NCBI RefSeq assembly: GCF_036785885.1
Contig: NC_092317.1
Coordinates: 9,426,501 to 9,490,500, forward strand
DNA: 64,000 nt
Origin: Coffea arabica
Taxonomy: Eukaryota > Streptophyta > Magnoliopsida > Gentianales > Rubiaceae
Reading direction: 5' to 3'
The notes under the pieces were generated by a model. That model worked only from the letters and a program-made list of their open reading frames with translations, had not been told where the DNA came from and searched no databases. Made by a program: the position numbers and the translations under genes. How positions within the stretch are numbered: the stretch's first letter is position 1; each line of letters starts with the position of its first letter. Shown here piece by piece: positions 5,908-60,800 of the stretch.

Positions 5908-6068
5908 TTCTTTCTTCTTTTTGGTGTCTGTGATGTGTGAAAAGATTGGGAAGGGTTTAAGGAGAGGAGAGTGAAGAGAGAGAGGATAAGGAGAGAAGGG
6001 GGGAAATGGTGATGATGGGTTTTGCTGGGCTACAAACAAAGCGGCGGATGGTCCAAGATTTTGAGACG

Positions 6069-6804: not shown

Positions 6805-6961
6805 TCTTGGAAATTTTTCGTCTGTTTTTCAAACCTTTTTTGTTTCTTGATAATCGTCACGTTGTTCTCTACAAGTAAGGAGTAATATGTTTGCTTGCTT
6901 TTCAATATTTTGGACTATTTATGCCGTCCAAGACATGAGTGGACCCGATTTTCAAACACTC

Positions 6962-7252
6962 AAGGTGTGTTTCTGTTTGCTAAAATTGAATTTTGAAAAT
7001 TAAAATCTAAAATTTGAATAATTAAATTATTGAATTATTAAATATTAATTCAAATGCATTTGAATGTATATCATGTTTAGCGATAAGTGAATAACTCATC
7101 GCTTATTTTTTGGAGCAAATTTTACTTAAAAAATTCTGCGTCACTTAATTAATTCAAATGTTCAATTTTTTATTATCAAACGCGTCTAAATATATTAATA
7201 TATAAATCCATTAAATTTAAATGATAAATTAAGTTCATCAAACAGATCAATG
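6962..7252. mobile_element. MITE-like repeat, copy 1 of 3
   Basis: This AT-rich block of about 290 bp shares an ordered set of phrases with 12655-12922 and 14150-14425: AAATTGAA(A/T)T repeats, GAATGTATATCA, GATAA(A/G)TGAATA, GGAGCAA(A/G)TTT, TTAATTAATTCA(A/G)ATGTTC and a closing TCAAAC. It has the size and composition of a widespread asterid MITE family. Clean TIRs and a TSD were not resolved. Confidence 0.6.
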
Positions 7253-7254
7253 AA

Positions 7255-34641: not shown

Positions 34642-35343
34642 GTCTTAGGCAATGTTTTTAAACTCGGACCGGCCAGCGAACCGGAGATAGGGGCGGTTCA
34701 CGGTCCGACCGGTCCGACCGGTCCGACCGGCCGGTTCAACGGTTCAACGTTTTTTTTTTTTTTTTTGCTTCATAGTTCTTTACTCTGAAACTTAACTGAA
34801 ACTTAACGGCTAATATACAATCTAATATGATTATTAATAACTTAAAACCCTAAAATACATTTACCAATATAACTTAAAATTAAATTTAAGTTGAGATAAT
34901 AATAAATTTTCTAAAAGTTATACATGAAACCTGGCATGATAAATATAACTAAAATATCATAATTCATCGCAGGTTTTCATAAATTCATTACAAACATAAA
35001 TAGATATAGTCCAAATGTTCATCAATTATCACAAACAAACACACCAAAATAAATAAAATAAATGTTGACATTCTTTCACAATTCTCAAAAAGTCCATAAC
35101 AGAGTTCAACTCATATTCAAAGCAAACAATTTGAATAACAAATTTCCATCATTGGCATGACAAGGCAACAGCACCTCCTTCACAATTTCATCAATTTAAC
35201 CTGAAAAATTAAAAAGTTTATTACAAAAAATATAAATCTAATTGGTGGAACTAAAAAAAAGTCAAAAAATTTCTAAAAACAAAGATACAACCAAACACAA
35301 AAAGAATCAATTGCTACTAAACATTACTAATTAATATGTTATA

Positions 35344-37892: not shown

Positions 37893-38154
37893 TATCCTTC
37901 ACATAGTTAATTCAAACACATAATTAGTTCATTTGTAAAATATAGTGTACTAATAAGAAAATAAAATTAACAAATTTTCAGTAATATAAGAAGATCAATT
38001 AGTCACATGAATAGCTCAACTGTTAGCATTTAATTTTTTCATTTACAAAAAAAAAAAAAGATATAGTTATCACAGTAGAGGGATTTTAATGGTTCTTAGT
38101 AGCACAAAACTCATGGCTATTAATGGTTCTTAGTAGCACAAAACTAGTTAATTT

Positions 38155-40847
38155 AAACACAGGAATCTTACTTTTTGTTTTCCTAAGAAACAAAGAAATA
38201 ACAAGAAGGATATATACTAATAGTGAGACAATTATGTACCTAGTCAATTTATATACAGCGTGTGTTATATTGTTATTGTCTAGGTAATTTGAACAAACAA
38301 TAGATAAAGGAAACAGAAAAGTTAGCAAATACGTAAATTGCTCAAACAAGTTACCATAGGCAATTTTTCTTGGGTTTGACAATTAAAATGATTTCTACTA
38401 ATTCGTTAAAGAACACTGATTCGAAGAAAATGACTCCTAAAAGTAGTGAATTTTTCTATATTCAACCGAAGAAGGAAATCAATTGTAAAAAATGCTATCA
38501 TTTATAAGTCATAAACAAATGCAGCTCTTACAAAAACTGAAATGTTTCTTCTTGAATAACATGTCTCTGGATACGTGGCAATAGGTAAAAAATGTCATGA
38601 TTATTTCAAAGTCAGACATATCTCTGTATTTTCAAGAAAATTATTCGTTAATTAATATGAAATATTAATCCCAAATTATTAATAAATCTCTATTTTTATC
38701 CTCAAATTATAATAATTTTAATTTTAGAATCAACCCAATCAAGTAGGGGTAAGGGCTAAATTCTTGGTTGCTATCAACAATTTGTAGCAACAAAAAATTT
38801 ACACCCGCAAACTATGAATAATTTGATGAAACAATTGATCAAACACAGGAATCTTACTTTTTGTTTTCCTAAGAAACAAAGAAATAACAAGAAGGATATA
38901 TACTAATAGTGAGACAATTATGTACCTAGTCAATTTATATACAGCGTGTGTTATATTGTTATTGTCTAGGTAATTTGAACAAACAATAGATAAAGGAAAC
39001 AGAAAAGTTAGCAAATACGTAAATTGCTCAAACAAGTTACCATAGGCAATTTTTCTTGGGTTTGACAATTAAAATGATTTCTACTAATTCGTTAAAGAAC
39101 ACTGATTCGAAGAAAATGACTCCTAAAAGTAGTGAATTTTTCTATATTCAACCGAAGAAGGAAATCAATTGTAAAAAATGCTATCATTTATAAGTCATAA
39201 ACAAATGCAGCTCTTACAAAAACTGAAATGTTTCTTCTTGAATAACATGTCTCTGGATACGTGGCAATAGGTAAAAAATGTCATGATTATTTCAAAGTCA
39301 GACATATCTCTGTATTTTCAAGAAAATTATTCGTTAATTAATATGAAATATTAATCCCAAATTATTAATAAATCTCTATTTTTATCCTCAAATTATAATA
39401 ATTTTAATTTTAGAATCAACCCAATCAAGTAGGGGTAAGGGCTAAATTCTTGGTTGCTATCAACAATTTGTAGCAACAAAAAATTTACACCCGCAAACTA
39501 TGAATAAGAAACAAAGAAATAACAAGAAGGATATATACTAATAGTGAGACAATTATGTACCTAGTCAATTTATATACAGCGTGTGTTATATTGTTATTGT
39601 CTAGGTAATTTGAACAAACAATAGATAAAGGAAACAGAAAAGTTAGCAAATACGTAAATTGCTCAAACAAGTTACCATAGGCAATTTTTCTTGGGTTTGA
39701 CAATTAAAATGATTTCTACTAATTCGTTAAAGAACACTGATTCGAAGAAAATGACTCCTAAAAGTAGTGAATTTTTCTATATTCAACCGAAGAAGGAAAT
39801 CAATTGTAAAAAATGCTATCATTTATAAGTCATAAACAAATGCAGCTCTTACAAAAACTGAAATGTTTCTTCTTGAATAACATGTCTCTGGATACGTGGC
39901 AATAGGTAAAAAATGTCATGATTATTTCAAAGTCAGACATATCTCTGTATTTTCAAGAAAATTATTCGTTAATTAATATGAAATATTAATCCCAAATTAT
40001 TAATAAATCTCTATTTTTATCCTCAAATTATAATAATTTTAATTTTAGAATCAACCCAATCAAGTAGGGGTAAGGGCTAAATTCTTGGTTGCTATCAACA
40101 ATTTGTAGCAACAAAAAATTTACACCCGCAAACTATGAATAATTTGATGAAACAATTGATCAAACACAGGAATCTTACTTTTTGTTTTCCTAAGAAACAA
40201 AGAAATAACAAGAAGGATATATACTAATAGTGAGACAATTATGTACCTAGTCAATTTATATACAGCGTGTGTTATATTGTTATTGTCTAGGTAATTTGAA
40301 CAAACAATAGATAAAGGAAACAGAAAAGTTAGCAAATACGTAAATTGCTCAAACAAGTTACCATAGGCAATTTTTCTTGGGTTTGACAATTAAAATGATT
40401 TCTACTAATTCGTTAAAGAACACTGATTCGAAGAAAATGACTCCTAAAAGTAGTGAATTTTTCTATATTCAACCGAAGAAGGAAATCAATTGTAAAAAAT
40501 GCTATCATTTATAAGTCATAAACAAATGCAGCTCTTACAAAAACTGAAATGTTTCTTCTTGAATAACATGTCTCTGGATACGTGGCAATAGGTAAAAAAT
40601 GTCATGATTATTTCAAAGTCAGACATATCTCTGTATTTTCAAGAAAATTATTCGTTAATTAATATGAAATATTAATCCCAAATTATTAATAAATCTCTAT
40701 TTTTATCCTCAAATTATAATAATTTTAATTTTAGAATCAACCCAATCAAGTAGGGGTAAGGGCTAAATTCTTGGTTGCTATCAACAATTTGTAGCAACAA
40801 AAAATTTACACCCGCAAACTATGAATAATTTGATGAAACAATTGATC
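38155..40847. repeat. Four tandem copies of a 686-bp unit inside hAT copy 1
   Basis: Units: 40162-40847 (686 bp), about 39527-40161 (635 bp, with a 51-bp internal loss), 38841-39526 (686 bp) and 38155-38840 (686 bp). Units are essentially identical. They lie upstream of the transposase start, so they form its promoter or 5' leader. Each carries the inverted phrase TTGTTGATAGCAAC/GTTGCTACAA. Each also carries an open frame of 70-98 codons that begins with TTG, not ATG; I do not regard it as a gene. Confidence 0.95.
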
Positions 40848-41223
40848 AATATAAGAATAGTAAGAAGAAACAATCGGCATCACAGAAATAATCCAACATA
40901 CATGTTCTATGAAAAACAATAAAAGGCAAAAATTAAACTTACCAAGATGGAAAAGCTCTGGAGTTTGGTCCACAGAAAATAGCGTGATGATCTTGTCTTG
41001 AATATTTGGATGTGAAAGGATTATGAAGAAAAAATTTAAAAAAAAATCAAGATGAGAAGTTGAGAACTGGAGGAGCCGAAATCGGCGAAAGGGAGAAATG
41101 GAGGAATTGAAATTGAAATGAAATGTGCCTGTGCCGTCTGCACTTAATGCTAGGGTTTTTTTTATTTTATTTGATTTTAGTTTTTAGTTAAGTAAAATTT
41201 CACGCAACAATAGCTTGTCCTTC

Positions 41224-41290
41224 GGCTGTGGTTCAGTGGTTTGCGTGCCTTATTCTGGTCTGGGAGACCTGTGTTCGAATCTCTGCAGCC
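41224..41290 (+). other. tRNA-like block with pol III A and B boxes near the 5' end of hAT copy 1
   Basis: 67 bp start GGCTGTGG and end CTGCAGCC, so the ends can pair as an acceptor stem. TGTGGTTCAGTGG (41227-41239) resembles the A box and GTGTTCGAATC (41271-41281) the B box. D- and T-stem pairing is poor, so this is a decayed tRNA or tRNA-derived SINE head, not a working tRNA gene. It lies antisense to the transposase and points toward the element end. The same block is in copy 2 (47495-47561). Confidence 0.55.
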
Positions 41291-41510
41291 GCCTCCACTC
41301 TTCCTATTATTTTGAAATTGAGGGAAAATCTGAGAACCGCCGGTTCGCGGTTTATGCGGGTTTTAACGGTTCGTATGGTTCGACCGGTTCATAGCGGTTT
41401 TCCATTACCTTCCGGGTTTGATACTAGACCGGACCGGTGGCATGGCCGGTTCGCGGTCGGACCGGTCGAACCGGCCGGTCCGGTCCGGTTCTGAAAACAT
41501 TGGTCTTAGG

Positions 41511-42363
41511 TTACATGCAAATCATCTTCTCTTCTCTGTGTTTTTAGTATGTTCCTACTCCGTTTGGATTAGCTATTTTTGAGGTGTTTTTGAAAAATTT
41601 TGCTGTAGCAGAGTTTTTAGAGTATATTTTGGAATATTTTTAGAAAATATTTTGGGATATTTAAGAGTAGAAGAGTTTCTAAAATATATTTTGAGATTTT
41701 TTTAAAATTTCAAAAAAAATTTAAACTAATTTTAGATTGCTTTTTAAAATACTTTTTAAAAATTTTTATTATATTTAAAAAAACTAGTTTTTGAATAACA
41801 CTCCCATCCTAGAGATTATATTGAATCACTTTTGCAATCAGTATTGGTGATGGTGGCATGGTAATTAGTAATTAGCAACACAAATTCATTACTAGCGAAT
41901 CTATAACTACTAAAATGATTGTGAGATGTGCCACTGGCCTTAAATTCTTTTACGATCGTCATTGAGCAACTTGTATTTATCAATTGTATGATTACTTATG
42001 AATTAATCACATTGAACTCCATCAACTAATCTTGGTGGGGTAATTATTCAACAAGCAGAAGGAATGACCATGCAGTGAAATTAGGCCAGGTTGATACAGG
42101 ATTTTATTACGTTTATTGGATTAATCATCTCACATGTTTCTAAGGGTGTTTAGATTACAAATTACTCAGAAATCCGAAATCTCTTTCATGTTGTGAAGCA
42201 TCTGTGAAAATGTGAAAGGCACCTCATAAAATTTCAAATTCGCTGGCCAACTACTGAATTAGCAGTTAGCAATTTGTCATTCCTTCAAATTTTCAGTGCG
42301 ACGGCTGATCTTCTCCATCTGAGCATCTAGCTGTAAACAAATGCCAGTTTCTGTATTGTCATT
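41511..42363. other. Intergenic flank with a one-sided MITE-like end
   Basis: CCGTTTGGATTAGCTATTTT (41560) begins an AT-rich stretch like the TTTGGATTG-ended MITEs, but no right end was found. Nothing else is recognised. Confidence 0.45.
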
Positions 42364-43726
42364 GAGTTAATGGCAAAACTTCATCGGGCTTGTAAAGACT
42401 GGGGCTTCTTTCAGGTAACAAATCAAGAGAATCCATCAGATATAGAATCCAAATTGTACAACTTGTAATGATCAGATACACAGCTTAATTTTCGTAGTAA
42501 ATTAACGACTAACAGTCCGTGACTCAATCTTGAACAGTTAGTTAATCATGGGGCTGCCACAGTAATTGAGAAAATGAAGTTGGTGACGGAGGACTTCTTT
42601 AAGCTGCCGTTACAGCAGAAGATGGCCTGTCCACAACTACCAAATGATGTTGAAGGATATGGTCAAATATTTGTGGTATCAGAGGATCAAAAGTTTGACT
42701 GGGGGAACATGCTCTTCCTCTGCGCATTGCCAGTTTCTCAAAGAAATATGAGATTCTGGCCTACGACTCCAACATCTTTCAGGTAGACAATGAATATTAC
42801 AGAGTATCACAATCTTTTCCCACTTCTGCAGTAATATTATACTGCTCTTATCTTTTCTCAGAAGGCTAGCCTTTTTCGTCAAGCTCCTCTGCTTACGGAA
42901 TTTCCTATTCGTTATGGGAATTTATCCTCTATTTTTCGCGCAATTGCAAAACAAAGATTCTTTAAAAGGAAGCATCTTTTGCTTCCATTAGAAAGCTACA
43001 TGGATTACTTTACTTAGGCGGAAAAAAACCTGAAAATTGTGTACAAAAAATTCATCACAATGCTAATTCGCAAATTTCTGATGATGTCAGAGCAACCATG
43101 GATGAATACTCACTTCAAATGCACAAGGTTTGCATGACCCTGTTTAAACTTATGTGGGCGAATCTTGGTGTAGACCCAGAAAAATTATGCAGCATCAATC
43201 AAGATGGCATGCAAGGAATAAGAATGAATTACTATCCACCTTGCCAGCAAGCAGACAAAGTTATTGGCCAGAGTTCACACTCTGATGCAATAGGATTGAC
43301 CTTGTTAGTTCAAGTCAATGATGTTCAAGGCCTGCAAATCAAGAAAAGCAACACATGGGTGCCTATTAAACCCATTCCTGGAGAAATCATCATCAATATC
43401 GGTGATATCATGGAGGTAACTGACCAATTTTCCACTTACTGAGCATCTATAGATATCATTGAGTTGATGTGCTTTGATGATTTGTGCAAATAAAGAGCAA
43501 TGGGGAATATCGCAGCATTGAGCATTGAGCTGTCGTGGATTTCCACAAAGAAAGACTTCCAATTGCTGCATTTCACGGAACAAATTTCACAGCAAAAGTT
43601 GGCCCTGTAGCAGATCTTGTCAAAGAAATTGGAGAACAATACAAAACAACAGAAACCGAGAGCCTTCTCAGACTCTGCAAACTTGATGGCAAAAGCTTAT
43701 GGGATCACATGAGGATAAACAAGTGA
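42364..43726 (+). pseudogene. 2-oxoglutarate/Fe(II) dioxygenase pseudogene (SRG1-like), four exons recognisable
   Basis: This family oxidises specialised metabolites and hormones with 2-oxoglutarate, Fe(II) and O2. Pieces in order: end of exon 1 (42364-42414, LHRACKDWGFFQ), exon 2 (42538-42782, LVNHGAA to QRNMRFWPTTPTSF), exon 3 (43091-43415, TMDEYSLQMHKV to PGEIIINIGDIME) and exon 4 (43496-43726, SNGEYRSIEH to SLWDHMRINK). Splice phases still agree. The Fe ligands HSD (first His-x-Asp) and the second His in SIEH remain. The next codon, normally Arg in EHRA, is TGA (43526-43528). The usual RxS that binds 2-oxoglutarate reads RLP. The N-terminal about 60 residues are missing. It is therefore non-functional. 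Confidence 0.85.
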
Positions 43727-44084
43727 AAGAATCAGCACATTTTCACTTGCAGTATTACTGTTTTTTTTTTTAATCTTCATCATAAGCCAAGCTTAGTGAA
43801 TTACCAATATGCCTTCATGGAAGTTTCTAGTTGCATGTTATTGATCTGTTTGCTTTTTTATGTTATGGTCGGTTGTCCAACTCTGGTCCTTAGTTAATTT
43901 CCTTTCTTATACTTTAGTAGTGTAAGTACTAGCCCACTAGGCTAGTCCAAGTCAGATTCCCAAGGTTACATCGGCGGTGGTGATTAGTTGTCCAAATTCA
44001 AGTGTGTTTCCTGGATGAAGTATCAATATTAGGAAGTTTGTAACTACAGTGGTGCGCTAGATTTGCACTTGTCTGAACGATATC

Positions 44085-44369
44085 AAACCAACCTTGGATG
44101 AATGCTCACTTGAATTGCTTGAAGTCTGCATAACCCTTGTTAAAGTGACGGTCACGAATCTTGGGGTGGACGGACAAGAGATACTAAACAGCATGTATCC
44201 GGATGTCATGCAAGGGATGATAATGAATCAATGTCCACCATGCTCGCAAGGAGACAAGGTAATGTGTCTCATCGCTCCACATTCTGACGGAGGACTTACA
44301 CTATTGGTTCAAGTCAACAAAGTTGAAGGGCTGCAGATCAAGAAAAATAATAGATGCGTGCTTACATAA
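44085..44369 (+). pseudogene. Second 2-oxoglutarate dioxygenase fragment
   Basis: One exon equivalent to exon 3 of the neighbouring pseudogene: LDECSLELLEVCITLVK to NLGVDGQEIL, then PHSDGGLTLLVQVNKVEGLQ (with the HSD Fe ligands) and a stop in place of the rest. No other exons surround it. It is a remnant of a tandem copy. Confidence 0.8.
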
Positions 44370-44496
44370 CTTCCTAGTTCTAGTTTTTTGGTCATGCACT
44401 GGAGGAGGAGTATGATGATGTAGGAAGTCAGGGAAAACAAGAAAATTTGTCAAAGAGGAAGAAGTCAATTTCTAAGAATGGACATAAAGTCGATTT

Positions 44497-46735
44497 CTAA
44501 GATGTGAATTTCCTTATTTTGGGTAAACAATTTTCTAGGTTGCCTCGCAATACGTGAGAAGCAAGAACATCTATAGCATTCATCCTGTCCCTGGGAGAAT
44601 CTTCTGTGCAAGCTATAGCTATTCTCACAATAGACGTTATGCCCTCCAACTTTTCAGCAAAGTGTTGATAGCCTGGCTTGAGCAAGTTTGCATCTACTAC
44701 CTGAGATACTACAGTAGGCAGTTGGCACACAACTTTTTACCCAGTTCCTTAGACATGTATCTGAAAACATTTCATCAATGGGCTTTAATCTAGCAAAAAC
44801 TTCTATCAGCATGCTTCCGTAGCTATAAATGTCAGATCCTGTTGATACTAGTCCTTCGAATCCATACTCTAAAGTGGAAATTGTTCAATGGATCATGTTT
44901 TCACACAATTAGAACAGAAATTTTGAGTTTAAATCTCTAAGAAACAAAATGGAGGTATTTGGAAGTAATTGGAGCTTTACCTGGTGCAATATAGACAATA
45001 TTTTTGGAACACCAAAATTAGTCACACAGGCAACTATATCTTCATTTAGAAGGACATTATTTGGCTTCAAATCGCAATTGTTGTAAGAATACAACCACTT
45101 CTCAAGTCAAGGCTTCCATTGGGCAAGTAATCAAGTATTAATCCCTTGAAGTCATCATTGGAGCACACACCGATGACCTTGGTCAGATTTCTGTGCCTAA
45201 GACTGCGTAAGACTTCACGTTCTCTGGTCTCTTGAATGTATATTCCAACTGTAAATTGAACACCTTTATGGCCACACAAATTCCATTAGCGAGAATCCCT
45301 TTGTAAACAGATCCAAAACTTAGTAAGTTGCTTTCATCATAACCATTGGTTGCTTGTAGGAGTTCACAATACGAAATCCTTCCTTTTGCTGTCAAGGAGA
45401 ACAAATTAGTTCCATTAGGAACCTTCTCCTTCTGTACGTATCGAAGGAACAAAAATGCCAAGTCTACACCAGCAATTATTGCTGAAACTCCAAACACTAA
45501 CAATTTAGTTTGAAGCACTTTCTTTGTCCTTGATTTGTGAATTGAAGGAGTTTGGCTTGCTGGAACATAATGCATCATTGGAGATAAAAGATTCACTAGT
45601 GAAATTCTTGAAAGGGCCGTTAGATGGAATTTGCCCCTGTAAATAAATAATTGAAAGAGACATTGAAGTAGCTGAGAGATTGAAGTGTTTTGATAGGTCC
45701 AAATATTCCAAACTTACCATGTTACTGATTGACTCAGGAATGGTACCTTCAAAGTTGTTCTATGCCAAAGAAAGATGATTCAAGTTTTCTAAATCTCCAA
45801 TTCTGCTAGGAATGTTATTTGAGAACTGATTCATCCACAAATTTATCCATGTTGCAACCTTCAACAGTCCAATCTCTGAAGGTAGAGAGCCAGTCAAGAA
45901 ATTCGATGACAGAATAAATCCCAAGAGATCTTTGAGGCTCCACAAACTGTCAGGCACATAAGAAGTTATTCTGTCGGAAGCTAGATAAAGATATATGAGC
46001 GAAGTAAGATTACCTAAACATGCAGGAATTGATTTCCAATCAGATGTAATAAATTCAAGTACTGTAAGCTACACAAACTATCAGGCAAGGGATTCTCTCG
46101 TAGACCTAGCACTCTCAAATTGCTTAGATTGCCAACAGTTTTTGGAATTCTTCCCTTCATTTTACAGCCACCTGCATAAATCTCTTCTATAGAAGAAGAA
46201 AGTTTTCCTATAGAAACTGGAAGAACACCAGTTAACCGGTTATTAGCCACTGAAATTATTCTCAGGTATCTGCATTCTGTTAACGCAGTGACGAAGCTTA
46301 ACTCCACCAATGAAGATTCATTTGTTAAATTGTTATCAAACAGCACTAAGCATTCAAGAAATTGTAGATTCCCAAAGACTATATAAATTGGACGAGTGAA
46401 TCTGTTTCGAGCAAACTCTGCATGAGTGAGTTTAGAGGAGTTTGAGATTGAGTCAGGTACAATACAACAGTCTACTGAGGTTATTAGAGCTGAGGTAAAG
46501 GTCTTCTAAATTAGGCAGACCTAAACCCATATTGGACGGAAGATTGCCTGAAAGACTGTTGGAAACAAGTGAAAGCACTCTAAAAGTAGAGATGTTGAAG
46601 ATCCTGGTTGGTATGGAACCTTTAAACTGTTAAATCTTAGGTTCAACATCTCCAATGTTTGTAGGTTTCCAACCTCAGGGAATTACACCTGCCAAATTAA
46701 AACAGATAGAACTCCTGAAATGGAATGTTTTGCTA
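44497..46735 (-). pseudogene. LRR receptor-like kinase pseudogene (At3g47570/EFR-like class)
   Basis: A decayed gene on the minus strand, in pieces across several frames. From the 5' side (high coordinates): leucine-rich repeats (LRIISVANNRLTGVLPVSIG, VGNLSNLRVLGLRENPL and GDLENLNHLSL types), LRR end with QGQIPSNGPFKNFTSESFIS, a transmembrane segment (LLVFGVSAIIAGVDLAFLFL), juxtamembrane GRISYCELLQATNGYDESNL, a damaged kinase P-loop (FGSVYKGILANG), LRHRNLTKVIGVCSNDDF, catalytic-loop CDLKPNNVLLNED, the DFG position read as NFG, and a C-terminal lobe (VRIAIACTEDSPRDRMNAID). Such receptors sense microbial or damage signals at the plasma membrane. Multiple frame changes, lost Gly residues and a missing activation segment mean it cannot code a kinase. 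Confidence 0.85.
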
Positions 46736-47192: not shown

Positions 47193-47274
47193 TTATGTTT
47201 TCTTCTTCTTCTCCTCCCATAGCTGGCGCTCTCTCCATTCCCGGTCATCTGTATAGTAACCAATGAGAATTTCA
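47193..47274 (-). other. Detached native C-terminal codons of the NB-LRR gene
   Basis: Read on the minus strand across the TSD (the ATTCC inside CACATTCC), the sequence gives IP-EILIGYYTDDREWRERQLWE, then EKKKT and TAA at 47193-47195. This is the ending expected of RPM1-like NB-LRRs (a HIP..IG..TD.W. pattern). It is in frame with the gene body, which stops at the TSD at 52822. Removing one TSD and the transposon gives 2877 nt, exactly 959 codons. The exon is now separated from its gene by the 5.5-kb hAT. Confidence 0.85.
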
Positions 47275-47494
47275 GGAATGTGCAATGTTTTCAGAACCGG
47301 ACCGGACCGGCCGGTTCGACCGGTCCGACCGCGAACCGGCCATGCCACCGGTCCGGTCTAGTATCAAACCCGGAAGGTAATGGAAAACCGCTATGAACCG
47401 GTCGAACCATACGAACCGTTAAAACCCGCATAAACCGCGAACCGGCGGTTCTCAGATTTTCCCTCAATTTCAAAATAATAGGAAGAGTGGAGGC

Positions 47495-47561
47495 GGCTAC
47501 AGAGATTCGAACACAGGTCTCCCAGACCAGAATAAGGCACGCAAACCACTGAACCACAGCC
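47495..47561 (-). other. tRNA-like block near the 5' end of hAT copy 2
   Basis: Counterpart of 41224-41290, with one visible base change (CTGTAGCC for CTGCAGCC at the 3' side). A- and B-box-like motifs are kept. Confidence 0.5.
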
Positions 47562-47938
47562 GAAGGACAAGCTATTGTTGCGTGAAATTTTACTTAACTA
47601 AAAACTAAAATCAAATAAAATAAAAAAAACCCTAGCATTAAGTGCAGACGGCACAGGCACATTTCATTTCAATTTCAATTCCTCCATTTCTCCCTTTCGC
47701 CGATTTCGGCTCCTCCAGTTCTCAACTTCTCATCTTGATTTTTTTTTTAAATTTTTTCTTCATAATCCTTTCACATCCAAATATTCAAGACAAGATCATC
47801 ACGCTATTTTCTGTGGACCAAACTCCAGAGCTTTTCCATCTTGGTAAGTTTAATTTTTGCCTTTTATTGTTTTTCATAGAACATGTATGTTGGATTATTT
47901 CTGTGATGCCGATTGTTTCTTCTTACTATTCTTATATT

Positions 47939-49310
47939 GATCAATTGTTTCATCAAATTATTCATAGTTTGCGGGTGTAAATTTTTTGTTGCTACAAATT
48001 GTTGATAGCAACCAAGAATTTAGCCCTTACCCCTACTTGATTGGGTTGATTCTAAAATTAAAATTATTATAATTTGAGGATAAAAATAGAGATTTATTAA
48101 TAATTTGGGATTAATATTTCATATTAATTAACGAATAATTTTCTTGAAAATACAGAGATATGTCTGACTTTGAAATAATCATGACATTTTTTACCTATTG
48201 CCACGTATCCAGAGACATGTTATTCAAGAAGAAACATTTCAGTTTTTGTAAGAGCTGCATTTGTTTATGACTTATAAATGATAGCATTTTTTACAATTGA
48301 TTTCCTTCTTCGGTTGAATATAGAAAAATTCACTACTTTTAGGAGTCATTTTCTTCGAATCAGTGTTCTTTAACGAATTAGTAGAAATCATTTTAATTGT
48401 CAAACCCAAGAAAAATTGCCTATGGTAACTTGTTTGAGCAATTTACGTATTTGCTAACTTTTCTGTTTCCTTTATCTATTGTTTGTTCAAATTACCTAGA
48501 CAATAACAATATAACACACGCTGTATATAAATTGACTAGGTACATAATTGTCTCACTATTAGTATATATCCTTCTTGTTATTTCTTTGTTTCTTAGGAAA
48601 ACAAAAAGTAAGATTCCTGTGTTTGATCAATTGTTTCATCAAATTATTCATAGTTTGCGGGTGTAAATTTTTTGTTGCTACAAATTGTTGATAGCAACCA
48701 AGAATTTAGCCCTTACCCCTACTTGATTGGGTTGATTCTAAAATTAAAATTATTATAATTTGAGGATAAAAATAGAGATTTATTAATAATTTGGGATTAA
48801 TATTTCATATTAATTAACGAATAATTTTCTTGAAAATACAGAGATATGTCTGACTTTGAAATAATCATGACATTTTTTACCTATTGCCACGTATCCAGAG
48901 ACATGTTATTCAAGAAGAAACATTTCAGTTTTTGTAAGAGCTGCATTTGTTTATGACTTATAAATGATAGCATTTTTTACAATTGATTTCCTTCTTCGGT
49001 TGAATATAGAAAAATTCACTACTTTTAGGAGTCATTTTCTTCGAATCAGTGTTCTTTAACGAATTAGTAGAAATCATTTTAATTGTCAAACCCAAGAAAA
49101 ATTGCCTATGGTAACTTGTTTGAGCAATTTACGTATTTGCTAACTTTTCTGTTTCCTTTATCTATTGTTTGTTCAAATTACCTAGACAATAACAATATAA
49201 CACACGCTGTATATAAATTGACTAGGTACATAATTGTCTCACTATTAGTATATATCCTTCTTGTTATTTCTTTGTTTCTTAGGAAAACAAAAAGTAAGAT
49301 TCCTGTGTTT
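47939..49310. repeat. Two tandem copies of the 686-bp unit inside hAT copy 2
   Basis: Units 47939-48624 and 48625-49310, both exactly 686 bp, lie between the 5' end and the transposase start. They are homologous to the four-unit array of copy 1. Units begin GATCAATTGTTTCATCAAAT. Confidence 0.95.
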
Positions 49311-49573
49311 AAATTAACTAGTTTTGTGCTACTAAGAACCATTAATAGCCATGAGTTTTGTGCTACTAAGAACCATTAAAATCCCTCTACTGTGATAACT
49401 ATATCTTTTTTTTTTTTTTGTAAATGAAAAAATTAAATGCTAACAGTTGAGCTATTCATGTGACTAATTGATCTTCTTATATTACTGAAAATTTGTTAAT
49501 TTTATTTTCTTATTAGTACACTATATTTTACAAATGAACTAATTATGTGTTTGAATTAACTATGTGAAGGATA

Positions 49574-52122
49574 ATGGATACCGGTACTGGTACGGGTAGT
49601 AATTCACAATCTTCGACTGCTGGAGCTGTCAATAGTGAACAATCAGCTAGTCAAAATCATAGACAAAAGTCTGATATAGCATGGAAATATTGTTCAGTAG
49701 GTGTGAATAGTCAAGGAAAAAGAACTTTGACATGTGGGTATTGTTTTAAAGTAATTGCTGGTGGTGGCATTCATCGAATGAAACAACATTTGGCAGGAGA
49801 ACAAGGCAGCATTGTTCCATGTTCAAAGGTTGACCCGGCAGTTAGACATGCTATTTTAGCATCTATGAAGGAGAAGGAGCAGAAATCTAAAGAAAAAAAA
49901 GGTGATTTTGGGGTGGAAAATCCATTCGGCCACACTACTCATTCATTTGATGGCGATGAAGTTTTGGAGATTCCTTCTTCTTTAGCAAATAAGATGGGTT
50001 CATCTAGTAAAGGAAAGAGAAAGGTCACTGCATCAACAGGTATTCCTGCTTTTTTTAAAGGTGGATGTGATACTTCTCAACCAACCATTAAAGCTTGTTT
50101 GCAAAGTAAGGAAAAATGGGAAAATACGGACATGGCTATTGCTCTTTGGTTTTATGATGCTTGCATTCCTATAAATGCTGTTAATTCTCCATTTTTTCAA
50201 AAAGCTATTGATCAAATAGCATCAATGGGTCATGGTTACAAAAGTCCATCCTATCATTCTTTGAGGGTTAATTTGTTGCGAAATGCCAAGAGAGATGTGA
50301 AATTGGTTGTTGATTCTTTTAGAAGTACTTGGACAGAAACTGGTTGCACTATAATGGGTGATGGATGGAAAGACACTAGGCAAAGACCACTGATTAATTT
50401 TTTGGTTTATTGTCCTAAGGGTATTTCGTTCATTAAATCTGTGGATGCATCTGATATTGTAACAAGTGCAGCAAATTTGTGCAATTTATTTGCTGAAATT
50501 GTTGAGATGGTTGGTTCAAATAATGTGGTGCACTTAGTTACTGATAATGCTAGCAATTATAAAGCTGCTGGGTCTTTGTTAAGTGAAAGATATCCGAACA
50601 TTTGTTGGTCACCGTGTGCTGCACACTGCATCAATTTGATTTTGAAAGACATTGGTGAAATGAATGATGTAAAAGCTATAGTGTCTCTTGCTTCAACGGT
50701 GACTGTTTTTATTTACAATCATAAGTTCACTTTGAATTGGTTAAGAAAGACTACAGGGTGGAAAGAAATTATTCGTCCAGGTGAAACTCGATTTGCAACT
50801 ACCTTTATTGCATTAAAAAGTTTGCATGATCATAAGGATAGTTTGCAATCTTTGGTTACTAGTGGGGATTACAAACAATTTCTGAGAATAGAAAAAGGAA
50901 AAGATGTGAAGCAAATCGTTTTGGATGAAAGGTTTTGGAATAACTGTTTGATTATGGTGAGAATAATGGGTCCTATCATTCGTTTATTGCGTATTTGTGA
51001 CACTGATGAAAGGCCTTCATTGGGTTATGTTTATGAAGGCATGTTTAGAACAATAAATGGCATCAAAAGGCTGTTTAGAAATAAAGAGAGATTGTACAAG
51101 CCTTATATTGACATCATCAGTGATAGGTGGGATAGAATGTTGAGAAAAAATCTACATGCTGCCGCTTATTATTTGAATCCTGCTTTTCAATATGAGAGTG
51201 CCACATTTTGTACACATCCAGAGGTTATAAATGGCTTGCTTGATTATATTGAAACAAAAGTGGATTGGTGCAACCCTGAAAAATTATCGCAAGAGGTTGG
51301 AATGTATCGGGAAAGACAAGGGAGTTTTGGCCGCAAACTTGCTATTCTTACTAGCAAATCTGATCGGCCAGGTTATTTATATTTTTTTTAATGTATAAAA
51401 ATTGTGATTTTATTCTTTATTTGATCTAATATTTTAATATGATTGTGACAGAAAATTGGTGGAAGTTATATGGTTGTGATGCTCCGAATTTGCAAAAGCT
51501 TGCAATTAGAATTTTGAGTCAAACTGCTTCTTCTTCTGGGTGTGAACGTAATTGGAGCGTTTTTGAACGCATTCACACTAAAAAAAGGAATAGGTTGGAG
51601 CACCAAAGACTTAATGATCTTGTATATGTGCACTACAATTTGCGTTTGCAACATAGGTATAATTGATTTTTTACTTTATTCTTTACATTTTATTTTATAA
51701 AGTAATATTAGATTTGTAACTAATGTATTTTATTGTAGGTTTGATCACCGAAAGAGATCTTATGATCCCATTGATTATGAATCTATTGATAAAACGGAAT
51801 TTTGGGTCATAGAAGAAGAACAAGATGGCGAGCTTAATTGTGATGAATTGGAGGAAGAACTCGAAGAACTTCCTAAAGATGATTCTCAACTAGTTGAAGG
51901 TTGGTTTTAATATTAAAATAAATATATTTTTAACTTGTAATATAAGGTGCTAAAAGTACATTTTTTAATTTGAATTGTATTATAAATATGGATAAATTCT
52001 TAATTGTTTATTTATTTATTTATATAGATGATGAAAGTGAAGTTGGGGAACATAATGATATTGATTTGGAAGCATTTCAGCGTAGGCGCCTTTTGGATGA
52101 TGATGAAGATAATGATTGGTAA
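49574..52122 (+). CDS. hAT transposase, copy 2
   Basis: Exons 49574-51371, 51452-51656, 51739-51899 and 52028-52122; joins CCAG|GTTATT..GACAG|AA, CATAG|GTATAA..TGTAG|G, GAAG|GTTGG..TATAG|AT. Total 2259 nt, 752 residues. Domains are as in copy 1: BED finger, DUF659/RNase H-like core with VTDNASNYKAAG, and the dimerisation block (GCERNWSVFERIHTKKRNRL) in exon 2, then an acidic tail. The start MDTGTGTGSNSQSS is the first ATG of the open frame and lies about 260 bp after the repeat array. The frame is uninterrupted, so the protein could be functional and could act on both copies. Confidence 0.95.
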
Positions 52123-52679
52123 TATAACATATTAATTAGTAATGTTTAGTAGCAATTGATTCTTTTTGTGTTTGGTTGTATCTTTGTTTTTAGAAATTTT
52201 TTGACTTTTTTTTAGTTCCACCAATTAGATTTATATTTTTTGTAATAAACTTTTTAATTTTTCAGGTTAAATTGATGAAATTGTGAAGGAGGTGCTGTTG
52301 CCTTGTCATGCCAATGATGGAAATTTGTTATTCAAATTGTTTGCTTTGAATATGAGTTGAACTCTGTTATGGACTTTTTGAGAATTGTGAAAGAATGTCA
52401 ACATTTATTTTATTTATTTTGGTGTGTTTGTTTGTGATAATTGATGAACATTTGGACTATATCTATTTATGTTTGTAATGAATTTATGAAAACCTGCGAT
52501 GAATTATGATATTTTAGTTATATTTATCATGCCAGGTTTCATGTATAACTTTTAGAAAATTTATTATTATCTCAACTTAAATTTAATTTTAAGTTATATT
52601 GGTAAATGTATTTTAGGGTTTTAAGTTATTAATAATCATATTAGATTGTATATTAGCCGTTAAGTTTCAGAGTAAAGAA

Positions 52680-52687
52680 CTATGAAG

Positions 52688-52722
<35 letters not shown>

Positions 52723-55616
52723 GTTGAACCGTTGAACCGGCCGGTCGGACCGGTCGGACCGGTCGGACCGTGAACCGCCCCTATCTCCGGTTCGCTGGCC
52801 GGTCCGAGTTTAAAAACATTGGGAATGTGTGCGATTCTTGCGTAATCTTCACTTTCTTCCTTTCGATTATCTAACAGCTTCCCTCTCAAATGAGAACTCA
52901 TCTCATACAAAGACAGTCGTTGAAGCTGGCTCAAGTGCTGAATACCCAATGGTAATTCCTCCAGTAATGGAAGTTGTTCCAAATATAGTTTCTGGAGATG
53001 AGGCAATGCACCCTCCTCCACTCTCATCCATCTCAACCCTCCCATTCCCTTTAGGTGCATCCTCTTGAGATTTAGGAACCCTCCAGCCGTGAAACACAAC
53101 CCTTCTCCCTGGTAAGATCCACAGAAATTCATTTCACCCAATCTGGGCAAATGCTGGAGGGAATCAAGTGGATCCTCCTCACCCCTTAACCCACTCCAAT
53201 TCAAATCTATTCTTACCAAGCCATGAAGACGAGCTACCCATTGTGGCATCTTTTCTAACCGGCCACGCAAAATCAGCATACGAAGAGATTGAAGAAACGA
53301 AGAAGAAGAACAAAGAGAAGGATGATTTAAATCGATTATCTCATGATCATCATCTTTACCAATTGAATCAACGCTTAATTCCCGAAGACTGGTGAGATTG
53401 GCAAGGGAGGAGCAGAGCTCCTTTCCATCTTCTCTTCTTAACTTTGTAATACCTAATTCTCTTAATTGGGTTAGCTTTCCTATCTCCTTGATTATTGTGG
53501 GTCCACTACTTGCATCTATGTTGTCTAACACTTCTAGGGCAAGAAGCCCTCCCATATTAGTTGGAGCTTTAAATCCGTGAGATCCATAATCATCATCTGA
53601 AGGATCAACTAGTTGATATACTCTGAGAAACCGAAGCTTTTGCAACTTTAGGATTTCCATGGGTAATTCCCTAACTCTGGTGTTACCCAAATCCAGAAAC
53701 TCCAAATGTTGAAGCTTCCCAATGGCTTTCGGGACTCTCTCCACTCTTGTACAGGATAGGTCCAGATGCTTGAGATGAAACAAGTTGAAAATCTCATTTG
53801 GTATTTCCTCCTCTGCCTCGTGACCACCCAAATCCAAAACCTTTAACAACTTGCTACTCCCTAAAACTTCAGATAACAACATTTTGGATAGTAGCAGGTT
53901 CGTGTATCCAACTGTAACGAACGACCGAAGGTGGTCAAAGCAGTCATTGTGTCTTTGTTGGTGGTGCTGGGTGTTGTTACTGCTACTACTACGGAGTACT
54001 AGACGGCGTACCTTCTCAGGCGGCCACGTCGTTGGTTGTCCAGTAGTAACTGTCATCATATTTTGTTCCCTTGACTTGAGAAGAATAAATTCTCTCACTA
54101 AATCATGGATTTGACAAGTGTCGGGCGTTCCTTCATAAAACACCTTAGTCACTTGAATTAGGCTTCTATTAACGAGTTCACTGAGATAACCCCTGGCTAC
54201 ATCTTCAATACTCATTCCTTCTCTCCCTTCTACAAACCTTTCACCAATCCATAAGTTAACAAGTCTTAGGCATCCTATTTCATAATCCTCTGGATAAATG
54301 CTTAAATACAACAAGCATGTCTTTAGATGCCAGGGCAAATCATTATAACTAAGAAAAAGTATCTCTTTAATTCTGTCCAGCCGACCAGAGCCTTCTAATT
54401 CACCCCCAAGACTGCGTCGAACAACCTCCCATTCCTCTGTTCTGTCTACATCTTTCAAAGCCAAAAGGCCACTGATTGCAACGATTGCAAGGGGCAAACC
54501 CTCACATTTATCCAATATACCTTTGGCAACATCCATCAAATGGCCAGGGCAATTACCATCTTTAAAGATCTTGTTGCAAAACAGGGTCCACGAATCCTCA
54601 ATAGATAGTGGCTCCATTCTATAGACAAAACCCCGAGATTCAATGCAAGAGGCAGAGGCTACATCAGCAATTCGAGTTGTTAGCATGACACGGTTGCCCC
54701 CGTGGCTACTCTCTGGCAGTGCAAATTTGATGGTATTCCAAAATTCCACGTCCCATACATCATCAAAAACAATTGCATACCTTCCAGCTTGTTGAAGAAA
54801 ATCTTTGACAAATTCTTTCAGCTCGGTGGTAGTCATGGACTCGATCGATTGTGGGACTGGTTTCTTCCCTTCCTTGTGCAACTGCCGAATCAAGTCTTTC
54901 AGGACATCCTGAAAGTCATATGTTTGAGAGACAGTTACCCAAGCACGAACTGGGAAGTGCCTTCTAACGTCAAGATCGTCATGGACTTTTTTCACTAGGG
55001 TAGTTTTGCCAAGTCCTCCCATACCAACCACTGAAACAACTTTCAGTTGGTAATCATCCCCTTCGAGAAGCTGAGAAATAAGACGTTTCTTGGGCTGGTC
55101 AATACCAACTAATTTAGCTTCTTCCACAAGCAGTGCGTCATCTCTGATATAGCGCCATGTTGTGTTGTTCACAGCAGAAAGTGAGTGGGACGCTTGGGCA
55201 GAGAGACCATATTCGGATTGATATCTTTGATGACCTTCAGAAATACTTTTGATTCTTGACTTGATGCTTTGTATTTCACTAGCAACTCGATGATGAGCTC
55301 TCAAATTCTTGATGGAGCTGAAAATTCTCCGAACAGAGCCGTAGAATCCTGTTGCGGGATGCCGAGCAAAGCGAGCTACAAATTCATCAAGAATGTCTTC
55401 AGTGTCATAAGCAGCCTCTCGCACTTGCTTGATCCATTCTTGGAGCCTGGGATCATCTTCTTCTTTTGCTTCTGCCACTCTCAGGAAAGATGTCATGTGC
55501 CCCAACTCATCCCTGATGAATTGGAATTCTTGCCGAAGCCCTCCCAATAGTCGTCCCTCCTCGCGCAGAAAAGTTGAGAGTTGATCCAGCACAAAAGAGG
55601 GAACCGCTTCTGCCAT
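52680..55616 (-). CDS. CC-NB-LRR resistance protein (RPM1-like) with a transposon-derived C-terminus
   Basis: Intracellular immune receptor that detects pathogen effectors. Single exon. Rx-type coiled coil (residues 1 to about 130, with TEDILDEF in the EDVID position). The NB-ARC has P-loop VVGMGGLGKTT (196-206), RNBS-A RAWVTVSQ, kinase 2 YAIVFDDVW (280-288), RNBS-B NRVMLTTR, GLPLA (373-377), RNBS-D CLLYLSIYPEDYE and the MHD-type motif QIHDLV. About 12 LRRs follow. All nucleotide-binding motifs look sound. Native sequence ends at AHIP (about residue 931), where a hAT (47283-52821) is inserted. The frame continues 46 codons into the transposon end (NVFKLGPASEPEIG, then Gly-Pro-Thr repeats and a poly-Phe run from the poly-A tract) to TGA or TAA near 52680. 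Native length would be 958. Loss of the last 27 residues and the native 3' UTR may or may not abolish function. Confidence 0.93.
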
Positions 55617-57463: not shown

Positions 57464-57862
57464 TTTATTTTGGTGATATTCGTGCCAAACATATTCCTAA
57501 TGTATCGGATGTTGCTGCAGTATGTTTAGATGTCAAAACAGAGGTGTGGAAAGTTAAGGGAAAAGACATTGAAGCATTTGTGGCCACAAACGGCAGGGGA
57601 AGTGTGTTGGCTGGGCACGTGGAAAGGGCTTTTGTGACTTGTAACCGGAAGAGCTATTGGGCGTTGAAGGGGACTCCATGTGCGCACGTGAAATGTGGAG
57701 GGGGCGAAATTAAGCAACTGGCAAAGTGAGGGTTTGTACGCGAAAGTACGGGAGGGAAAGAAGGCGCGAAGCTTACTGGATAAGCTAACAAGAGCAGGCG
57801 TATTAGAAAGGAAGAAGCGCCAAAACCGGAGCAGGAGGAATAGCAGAAGATAGGGATTTGTT
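57464..57862 (+). other. Upstream region of the Ulp1-like gene
   Basis: Rather G-rich. Short open frames (57544-57729, from GTG; and 57731-57850, ending in an Arg/Lys-rich stretch) have no ATG or no known family. This is probably 5' leader or promoter sequence. Confidence 0.4.
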
Positions 57863-60800
57863 ATGGAGCTGGCGGCCGAAATAGATGCTTCGGATATGCA
57901 GTGGGATAGCGAAGGAGAAAGCGAAAATGTAGTATCGCTGATGCATGAGAGTGGAACACCTTCGAATTATAAAAGTTGCAGCAGTGAAAGGAAGGGCATT
58001 CGTCGGACGGCGGAAACAATGGTAAGCCACTCAACTCATTCCGTGAAGAATATGGTGGATTGGCTCTCGGATGAGCAGCGGCAGGCTGTCAGAGACTTTG
58101 GATTCGGTCCAATTTTGAATGTGAAGGGAGTAGAGGTTGACGAAGAGATGTTGAACTGGCTGGTGGATAACTTTGATGTAGATCGGAGGACACTGAACGT
58201 TCATGGGTACTGTCTACAGGTGACAGCCGAGGATGTGGAATGTGTACTTGGCTTGAGCAGCCGTGGGAAAGATATTGAAAGCGAAAAGCGAAGGCAAGAG
58301 ATGGATACAGAGTTGGAAAGAGAATTGAATATCAGAATAAATAGCGGTGAAATTGTAGTGGAGGAATTGAGGCACAGTATATGTAGTTTGCATAACGAAG
58401 GCTTAGAATTCAAAGTGAAGTTCGTACTGTTTGTTGTTGGTAGGTTGTTAGCACCAAGTTTGGATGACACAGTGAGCCGGGATCTGGTGGCTGTAGTGGC
58501 TACAGAGGAGAATATGGAAAATTTGAACTGGTCGAAATTCATATTAGACAATTTGGTGAAGAGCATCCGTGATAGAGACGGCAACGGAATAGCGGGATGT
58601 GCACTTTTCTTGATGGTATAAGAAATACGCACCATTTTGTATTAGAGAAAGGAATTGCTGGAATAATGAAATTATAGTTTGATATAAAGGACCTGTAAAT
58701 GATGGTAGGCGTGTTTGTCCATGCAGATTTACTATCTGGAACGATTCTATATCGAGGGTGAGGACGAGTTTCGCAAGTTCCAGCCGAGAGGGCCGAGGCT
58801 AAGGTTTTGGGGAAGGTACGAGATTAATGAAAGCGTGCGAATATTGAGGAGGAATCACATATTTGAGGGGGAACAGGTAATGTAAAATCCTTTCGTGTGA
58901 ATTGTTGTTGAAATTGCAAGCTGCATTTTGTGACGTTACTAGTAGTACAAAACTGAAGGCTTGTAGTGACAGGGCAATGTGCAGTTTTACAATAACATAA
59001 GCTGTAGAGAAGACATCGATAGAAGACTGATTGAAATTGAATGTGGTAATAAAGATGTGAAGGATAGTATTGGTAGAATGGAAGCAATGATTGAATGTCG
59101 TTTCGAAAGGCTGAGGAGCATGTATGAAAGTGGAAGGGTGTGCAAAACAAACCGGGCACTTGGTGTGGAGGGTGGGCAGAAGGACGATTGGCGTGGTAAT
59201 GTTAAAAGAGGGAGTGAGTTACATAAGATTAGTCCTACAACGCCAGATGTTAGGTCCAAAAGCAGGAGTGAAAATGATAGAGTAACTACGAATAGTACTG
59301 AAATGGGTGAAAAGAGTGCATCAAAAATTACAAAGTGGAGGAGTAGAAAGAGACTAAGGATGGACAATACGGAGAAGCCTGTGTGGGAAGACAAACAAAA
59401 CAGAAGGCAAGGTAAAAGAATAAAGGTATGCATCGGTTTGTGGCAAGGTATTTCGTAGCATTAGAAAAGTAAAGTATAAATTGTAGTTTTATGTACAGAT
59501 GGATAGCAGTGGGATGAACGAGCGTCAAACGAAGATGGTTGCTTTATTGGCAAAGGTGAGTATTCCAACGTTCCAGAATTAATAAAGTATGGGAAAATAT
59601 AGACAATGAAAGATGAAATATTTTTGTGGTAGCAGGAAACGAGGCTGGCATCTATCGGCGAAAAATTGAGTGAGGGACGAGCAAAAATACTGAAGTTCTT
59701 GTTTGACACTCAGCTGTCGCAAGGGTATGTACTGGATTTGTTAAATCAACAGTTCTATTTTGTTTTATCCTTTATTTGAAATTGCAATGGCAAAAGGGAC
59801 AGAAAAGTATTTGCAATTATAAGGTTGACTAAATATGTAGTATGATTATCCCCATAGGGGAGAGGGCATAGCAACGAAAATGTTGGAAGCAGTTAAAATT
59901 GGTTTACAAGTGAGCATAGAACTTACATTTTGTGTGCTGTCAATCATGCCTGCTTATATAAAAAGCAAGGGTAGGTAACTTAGGTGAACATATAGAAAAA
60001 AAGGTGAGTATTCAAGAAGTTTGAGAATGGAACTACAATGATAACTCAATGACCCTTATGGTGAGTACATAACCGCCTTAGGCTAACTCAATGACCCTAA
60101 GGACTGATTGAGTCATTGAAACCGTGATTGCTGGCTGTATTAGTGAGGAAGAGCGAACCAACTCTGGCCGTTTTAACTCTCATCATTGAAAATGATGATA
60201 TCAAGTTTGTAGATTATGAAACCGTAATACAAATAGGGAAAAGATTAATGTACCCTGTTGTAATGACAGGGAAGTACTGGTGTCAATTAAGGGGCAGACA
60301 GCAAGCCGGGATGCAATGGGGTCCTTGCTTCCTGAAAAACCCATGGCATGCGATGTGAGTAAATCGAGGGATTGAAATTGGGTGGTGTTATGTGGACTGT
60401 TTCATGGAGGACGAAGTGATGTGACTTGAGTTTGGTGCAGATAATAAATTGCTATTGTGCGATGAAAACAGCAAGGCAGCAAAGGCGTGCTGTAGATCAG
60501 TCTATTCGATGGTGGTTCATGCCAACTTGGTTTCAGGTACAAGTGTTCGGCCAAAGTTGGGGGGTGTGAGTACGTACATTCATATTAAAATGTCATATTT
60601 TACTGTCGTGTTGTAGCAAGAGATTTTGGAGTTCAACAAATCAGCAGACGAGCTCTACTGTACATATCTACAGGAATGTAAAGTAGGAGGTAATATAAAA
60701 AAGTGTGAGAAGGTACGAGAAGCTGCCCTGTTATGTAGCATAATGGAATAGATACAGATTCCCATGACGATGACCAACTAACCGCCGTTATGCTTCAGAT

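What the first reader, a model, noticed from the sequence alone, without database searches (positions are those of the whole stretch)
47193..55616. A hAT transposon sits in the last codons of an NB-LRR immune receptor and supplies a new C-terminus
The gene frame runs through the 8-bp TSD (52822-52829) into the transposon end, adding about 46 residues that include Gly-Pro-Thr repeats and poly-Phe. Across the 5.5-kb element, after the other TSD copy, the native ending (EILIGYYTDDREW, then EKKKT-stop) reads on in frame. Length arithmetic gives exactly 959 codons without the element. The receptor body looks intact, so this may be a recent null, a chimeric receptor, or an allele that reverts on excision.
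Basis: partly seen in the sequence, partly recalled or inferred. Interest (0 to 1): 0.82.

Follow-up and report, generated by a model that had tools for sequence, protein, structure and literature searches.

The report
Jumping gene rewrites immune receptor's tail
In what is probably the Arabica coffee genome, a recently moved transposon landed in the last codons of a plant immune-receptor gene, so the gene as read now loses its own 26-residue ending and gains a low-complexity 46-residue one taken from the transposon; this is a clean example of a known kind of event, with no evidence yet that the new ending does anything.

Summary
A 5,539-bp hAT element (47283-52821; 8-bp target-site duplication GGAATGTG) interrupts codon 932 of a CC-NB-LRR gene (minus strand, from 55616). 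The frame runs 46 codons into the element to a stop (52680-52682). Beyond the element the native 26-residue ending and stop remain (47193-47273): 958 codons plus stop without the element. The 16 informative paralogue ends of 20 fetched carry a native-type tail; 9 of 9 paralogues aligned as DNA are uninterrupted at the site.

The insertion is recent: a sister copy (B, 34650-41502, inverted, own TSD) lies 5.8 kb away and differs by 4 substitutions in a MAFFT alignment. Copy A's transposase reads open in a four-exon model. Of 150 scored genomic matches to the new tail, only this one continues a long frame. The receptor body shows ordinary constraint.

Best reading: a recent, unselected, probably hypomorphic allele. 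Arabidopsis RPP4-ATCOPIA4 is a close published precedent. Whether the chimeric RNA or protein exists is untested. The species, Coffea arabica, is inferred.

The parts
52821..55616 (-). CC-NB-LRR gene, residues 1-932 (Rx_N, NB-ARC, winged helix, LRR), open and uninterrupted; the last base of codon 932 comes from the element
52683..52820 (-). chimeric tail, 46 codons read from the 3' end of the hAT element (Gly-Pro-Thr repeats, then poly-Phe from a 34-base T run)
52680..52682 (-). new stop codon inside the element
52560..52568 (-). AATAATAAA, a poly(A)-signal-like stretch in the element about 110 nt after the new stop (a pattern match only)
   Evidence: element offsets 254 and 257
52822..52829 (+). 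8-bp target-site duplication GGAATGTG, gene-body side
47275..47282 (+). 8-bp target-site duplication GGAATGTG, gene-end side
47283..52821 (+). hAT element, copy A (5,539 bp), with two 686-bp tandem units from 47937
49574..52122 (+). transposase gene of copy A, four-exon model (49574-51371, 51452-51656, 51739-51899, 52028 to stop), 752 aa; DUF659 and hAT dimerisation domain
   Evidence: the model rests on GT/AG sites, not on RNA
47196..47273 (-). stranded native ending, residues 933-958 (EILIGYYTDDREWRERQLWEEKKKKT)
47193..47195 (-). native stop codon
34650..41502 (-). hAT element, copy B (6,853 bp), sister of copy A, inverted, four tandem units; transposase reading frame ends early in exon 2
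34642..34649 (+). TSD of copy B (GTCTTAGG); the other copy is at 41503-41510

Best explanation
A recently active hAT transposon inserted by ordinary cut-and-paste into codon 932 of a CC-NB-LRR gene. What the sequence shows: the gene's frame runs into the element's GC-rich 3' subterminal repeats, which have no stop in this frame, continues for 46 codons and stops before an AATAATAAA stretch. Inferred: the message ends in the element, the native 26-residue tail is not translated, and the protein carries a low-complexity, hydrophobic-ended tail. The new tail was not selected. The allele is most likely hypomorphic or null through lower RNA or protein stability; near-normal function is possible because the last 15 native residues are weakly conserved in the family. 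The sister element 5.8 kb away points to local transposition.
For: Perfect TSDs and paired ends; uninterrupted site in 9 of 9 paralogues and native-type tail in 16 of 16 informative ends; DUF659 and Dimer_Tnp_hAT in the transposase; A and B share 3 derived substitutions against C6, C4 and C17 and differ by 4 substitutions in a MAFFT alignment; 27 of 30 family loci show a recognisable 3' terminus at up to 2 edits; among 150 scored matches to the new tail (of 426 candidates) only this one continues a long frame (983 aa against 136 at most elsewhere), so this looks like a chance landing, not a recurrent fusion; dN/dS against 9 paralogues 0.33-0.45, all pairs 0.30-0.53; 25 private changes at 577 columns invariant in the other 8 close copies, against 9-58 for those copies; first 11 native tail residues as conserved as the whole protein (0.841 against 0.842), last 15 less so (0.643).
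Against: No RNA, protein or phenotype data. Splicing could remove the element (a donor at 52852 or in the new tail with an acceptor at 47248 would be in frame), so the chimeric reading may not be the main product. A hypomorphic effect is assumed from loss of a partly conserved tail, not measured: over the 26 tail codons mean dN 0.148 and dS 0.173 point to weak constraint, and in the RPP4 precedent an isoform lacking the C-terminal region still works (PMC10241880, passages). On 'no excess decay': the private-change rate of this gene (4.3%) is the second highest of the nine compared (1.6-9.5%). On recency: a BLAST alignment of A and B counts 16 mismatches over 4,864 columns, against 4 in all by MAFFT; in the 3.3 kb before the homopolymer there are 2, so the difference seems to lie in how the homopolymer end is aligned.
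Confidence: 0.72

Rival explanations
1. The element is treated as an intron-like insert: cryptic splice sites near its ends remove most of it, giving a receptor with an altered join but the native last residues, as known for maize Ds insertions (recalled) and for the RPP4-ATCOPIA4 isoforms.
For: An acceptor-like TATACAG before 47248 in the stranded tail and donors at 52852 and 52750-52768 give in-frame products ending in the native EKKKKT. RPP4 transcripts spanning ATCOPIA4 keep the 3' ORFs despite a ~4.7-kb insert (PMC10241880, passages).
Against: The splice scores come from a rough, hand-made consensus (recalled weights) without a shuffled control, and are modest. The 5.5-kb element has several AATAAA motifs in this orientation, which could end the transcript first.
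Confidence: 0.15
2. The chimeric tail is functional: it changes the stability, localisation or activation threshold of the receptor and is kept by selection.
For: The receptor body is intact and evolves like its relatives; TE sequence in NLR 3' regions can change immunity (RPP4, PMC10241880, passages).
Against: Insertion too recent for selection to show in sequence; the tail's end depends on a homopolymer that varies among copies (longest A run 17-34 in the 9 copies most like A, A included); no second case of this tail in a long frame among the 150 scored matches.
Confidence: 0.07
3. Assembly artefact at one of the two junctions.
For: Two near-identical elements lie within about 18 kb, a setting in which assemblers can err.
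Against: Each element has its own perfect 8-bp TSD, and each site is uninterrupted in homologous segments (A: 9 of 9; B: 3 of 3); A and B differ in tandem-unit number and in substitutions. If the genome is the Arabica HiFi assembly, as inferred, the source was a di-haploid sequenced with HiFi reads (PMC11018527, passages).
Confidence: 0.03
4. Old, fixed insertion that became the normal ending of this gene (domesticated tail).
For: Only one copy of this locus was found in the assembly, so no empty allele of the same locus was seen.
Against: A and B differ by 4 substitutions in about 5.5 kb, whereas the gene differs from 8 close paralogues at dS 0.19-0.25; the stranded native tail is still open in frame.
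Confidence: 0.03

Closest known systems
Arabidopsis RPP4-ATCOPIA4 (PMC10241880, passages seen)
   Same: A transposable element in a late coding exon of an NLR truncates the ancestral 3' part and creates gene-element transcripts
   Different: Copia retrotransposon in a TIR-NLR (class recalled), several RNA isoforms shown experimentally; here a hAT DNA transposon in the last 26 codons of a CC-NB-LRR, no RNA data
hAT superfamily DNA transposons (Ac/Ds, Tag1, Tam3; names recalled)
   Same: 8-bp TSD, short terminal inverted repeats, subterminal repeats, transposase with hAT dimerisation domain
   Different: No named family assigned here; carries variable 686-bp tandem units between the 5' end and the transposase
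BED-NLRs such as Yr7/Yr5/Xa1 (names recalled; PMC7761493 seen in search listings only)
   Same: hAT-related sequence joined to an NLR
   Different: There a BED domain is integrated and maintained; here only non-coding subterminal repeats are read, with no domain
Maize Ds insertions spliced as introns (recalled)
   Same: hAT ends that offer splice sites in host genes
   Different: Only a prediction here

Membership tests
hAT superfamily | 8-bp target-site duplication | tested here: met
   copies A, B, C6 and C4: 4 of 4 examined at both ends
hAT superfamily | short terminal inverted repeats | tested here: met
   CAATGTTTT at both ends, 9 bp identical
hAT superfamily | transposase with hAT C-terminal dimerisation region | tested here: met
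   Dimer_Tnp_hAT E 3.5e-16 in exon 2, DUF659 E 3.2e-55 in exon 1
hAT superfamily | BED zinc finger at the N-terminus | tested here: inconclusive
   zf-BED E 0.0025, 18.2 bits, under the 20.6-bit cut-off
hAT superfamily | catalytic DDE residues | not tested
   no aligned hAT reference; no PDB sequence match at E<=1 for the exon-1 frame
CC-NB-LRR immune receptor | Rx_N coiled coil, NB-ARC, winged helix and LRR in order | tested here: met
   Pfam Rx_N, NB-ARC, WH_DRP, LRR_14; a native-tailed paralogue matches Sr35, MLA13, NRC2/3 and RPP13-like protein 4 (ZAR1, name recalled) chains
CC-NB-LRR immune receptor | confers immunity | not testable with these tools
   needs plant assays
NLR with TE-derived 3' end (RPP4-ATCOPIA4 kind) | element inside a late coding exon, displacing the native ending | tested here: met
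NLR with TE-derived 3' end (RPP4-ATCOPIA4 kind) | chimeric transcript detected | not testable with these tools
   no RNA data on hand

The most novel reading that the evidence does not exclude
The hAT element acts as a reversible 3'-end switch for an immune receptor: with the element in place the receptor carries an element-encoded tail and poly(A) site (or a spliced variant); somatic or germline excision by its own apparently intact transposase yields, in part of the cases, in-frame native or altered endings. The locus would then produce a mixture of receptor C-termini.
Probability: 0.06. Interest if true: 0.75.

Novelty: new member of a known kind. Interest (0 to 1): 0.36.

Why it matters
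It is a recent, structurally clean natural gene-transposon fusion in an immune receptor of a probable crop genome, with the uninterrupted state known from nine paralogues and a sister element next door. That makes the role of the short NLR C-terminal tail, and the fate of a fresh element-encoded tail, directly testable by comparing accessions. If the species inference is right it may also be a presence/absence marker among Arabica lines. The event type itself is known.

Tried and rejected
AlphaFold2 on residues 520-978 (LRR part plus new tail) as a single sequence gave mean pLDDT 35.4 and is not used. The idea that this element family recurrently supplies this tail to genes was tested by searching the 46-residue tail in the genome: of 150 scored matches (426 candidates), only the gene itself has an open frame above 136 aa; this sees only this frame of this end, without introns. 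The idea that the tail is special was not borne out: one of three entry frames at this end gives 46 codons, the other two 3 and 12; the same frame gives 38-53 codons in the 9 copies most like A, A included (L009-L017), and 18-50 in 11 further copies, one more (L027) not being read. Accelerated decay of the receptor was looked for; its rate of private changes is within the range of its relatives, though second highest of nine. A homeologous empty site on C7 was looked for: C7 matches window 2000-6077 at 96% and 6797-8000 at 88%, the DNA match stops near window 33.0 kb, and the 50 kb of C7 fetched hold no match to the NLR at E<=1e-3, so no same-locus empty allele is available. Eight paper searches showed 98 rows out of 748 papers counted over the searches; among those rows I saw no title or abstract start on this locus or on a natural hAT insertion in the last codons of an NLR. 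Only open-licence PMC papers are held.

Full report
What was checked. The element and its joints are exactly as reported. The 8-bp sequence GGAATGTG stands at 47275-47282 and 52822-52829 and encloses 5,539 bp that begin CAATGTTTTC and, read from the other end, CAATGTTTTT. The gene on the minus strand starts at 55616 and reads 978 codons to a stop at 52680-52682. Residues 1-932 are the receptor's, 46 come from the element.

Is the stranded ending real? Of 20 paralogue regions fetched, 16 were informative and 4 were the wrong gene end. All 16 informative ends continue past the insertion point with a tail: 13 close relatives with IPEI... followed by a (D/N)D...W...LW stretch, and 3 distant ones as H(I/V)SEVVIELWTDE.... 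Nine full-length paralogues (of 46 other matches) align as DNA through the site without interruption and with one copy of the TSD-like octamer, not always letter for letter.

What the gene is. Pfam gives Rx_N, NB-ARC, a disease-resistance winged helix and an LRR region: a CC-NB-LRR. A native-tailed paralogue matches Sr35, MLA13, NRC proteins and RPP13-like protein 4 (ZAR1, name recalled) by sequence; the best stretches listed for these end at residue 880 or before, and of the three alignments shown only a weak second stretch in NRC3 comes near the tail. The closest relatives in this genome are 80-85% identical and sit mostly on contigs C15 and C16 (47 of 2,816 candidates scored). dN/dS against 9 paralogues is 0.33-0.45, within the 0.30-0.53 of all pairs. 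Private changes at otherwise invariant columns number 25 of 577, against 9-58 for the 8 other close copies; as a rate (4.3%) this is the second highest of the nine. The body thus looks to have been under ordinary constraint until recently.

What the element is. Copy A carries a transposase gene that reads open through a four-exon model of 752 residues (introns placed at GT/AG sites that keep the frame, no RNA). Exon 1 has DUF659, exon 2 the hAT dimerisation region, and a BED finger is sub-threshold. Copy B, at 34650-41502 in the opposite orientation, has its own TSD GTCTTAGG, four 686-bp units instead of two, and differs from A by 4 substitutions plus indels by MAFFT; BLAST, which aligns the homopolymer end differently, counts 16 mismatches in 4,864 columns. 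Its transposase frame ends early in exon 2. In 3.3 kb of shared 3' sequence A-B differ at 2 sites, A-C6 at 6, A-C4 at 10 and A-C17 at 20; A and B share three changes absent from C6, C4 and C17. They are sisters, so one probably hopped from the other's site (inference). Both insertion sites are uninterrupted in homologous segments elsewhere (A: 9 of 9; B: 3 of 3). By a plant rate of about 7e-9 per site per year (recalled) 4 substitutions put the A-B split at the order of 50,000 years; this is rough.

How it most likely works. Reading into this end of the element gives 46 codons in the gene's frame and 3 or 12 in the other two frames; the same frame gives 38-53 codons in the 9 copies most like A, A included, because the GC-rich subterminal repeats lack stops there. 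So the tail is a by-product of which frame the element landed in. The tail's Phe run is a translated T run of 34, and the longest such run is 17-34 in those 9 copies; other lengths from 28 to 40 move the end by a few residues. AATAATAAA lies about 110 nt after the new stop, so the message may well end in the element. Loss of the tail matters to an unknown degree: its first 11 residues are as conserved as the whole protein (0.841 against 0.842 pairwise identity), its last 15 less so (0.643); over the tail codons mean dN is 0.148 and dS 0.173, weaker constraint than in the whole gene; and native paralogues themselves end in different ways, such as KKKT or KKKTYNLS. I therefore commit to a recent, unselected, probably hypomorphic allele; a near-neutral one is the nearest alternative.

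Is this fusion special in the genome? The 46-residue tail was matched at 150 scored places (of 426 candidates). Only the NLR itself has a long frame (983 aa, stop to stop); the next longest is 136 aa. Within that capped search, which ignores introns and other frames, this is a single event.

Where the genome comes from (inference). G000 has 1,197,963,845 bases in 131 contigs. The left part of the window matches C7 at 96% and 88%, and several older copies of the element sit at matching flanks on C9/C10, C7/C8, C15/C16 and C21/C22, as expected of a polyploid with paired chromosomes. The published Coffea arabica HiFi assembly is 1,198 Mb in 132 scaffolds, from a di-haploid line of a species with 22 pseudochromosomes (PMC11018527, passages). 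I take the species as probable, not proven. The 50 kb of C7 examined, which begin inside the matching stretch, hold no match to the NLR, so the receptor block was not found on the other homeologue.

Comparison with the known. In Arabidopsis RPP4 an ATCOPIA4 insertion in the sixth exon truncates the 3' part, transcripts end in or cross the element, isoforms preserving the original 3' ORFs persist, and an isoform without the C-terminal region suffices for the response (PMC10241880, passages). The present case is like that at the DNA level, with a different element class and a shorter displaced ending. It is a new member of a known kind.

Noticed in passing
window 34650-41502 and 47283-52821: Two sister hAT copies in opposite orientation 5.8 kb apart, with 4 and 2 tandem 686-bp units; by spacing the C6 copy has 2 and the C4 copy 1. 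A long near-identical inverted pair could give double-stranded RNA or rearrangements (inference).
   Followed up: partly
window about 34400-55700: Parts of the block around the NLR match segments near the NLR clusters on C15/C16 and on C11/C12, but no NLR match was found in 50 kb of the homeologous C7 region, suggesting a moved block or a loss on C7.
   Followed up: partly
window 42500-46500: Broken open frames that look by eye like a 2-oxoglutarate dioxygenase (plus strand) and an LRR receptor kinase (minus strand) lie between the two elements (no family search made).
   Followed up: no
window 41557-41811: A stretch of about 250 bp missing from the homologous C12, C11 and C16 segments and repeated at about 90% on many contigs: probably a small mobile element.
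   Followed up: no
window 6077-6806: A repeat of about 730 bp whose copies match it on both strands (about 92-98% and about 70%), so internally palindromic, on many contigs.
   Followed up: no
window 57504-60000: A dispersed repeat at 92-100% identity in dozens of places, about 1.9 kb upstream of the NLR start.
   Followed up: no
G000:C19:40955668-41022540: Fourteen matches to a guessed start-codon pattern at a regular 5,142-5,143-bp spacing: a recent tandem array; whether these are NLR genes was not tested.
   Followed up: no
window 55599-55601: Residue 6 of this NLR is Pro where the 8 paralogues printed have Val or Leu, in the first part of the predicted coiled coil.
   Followed up: no
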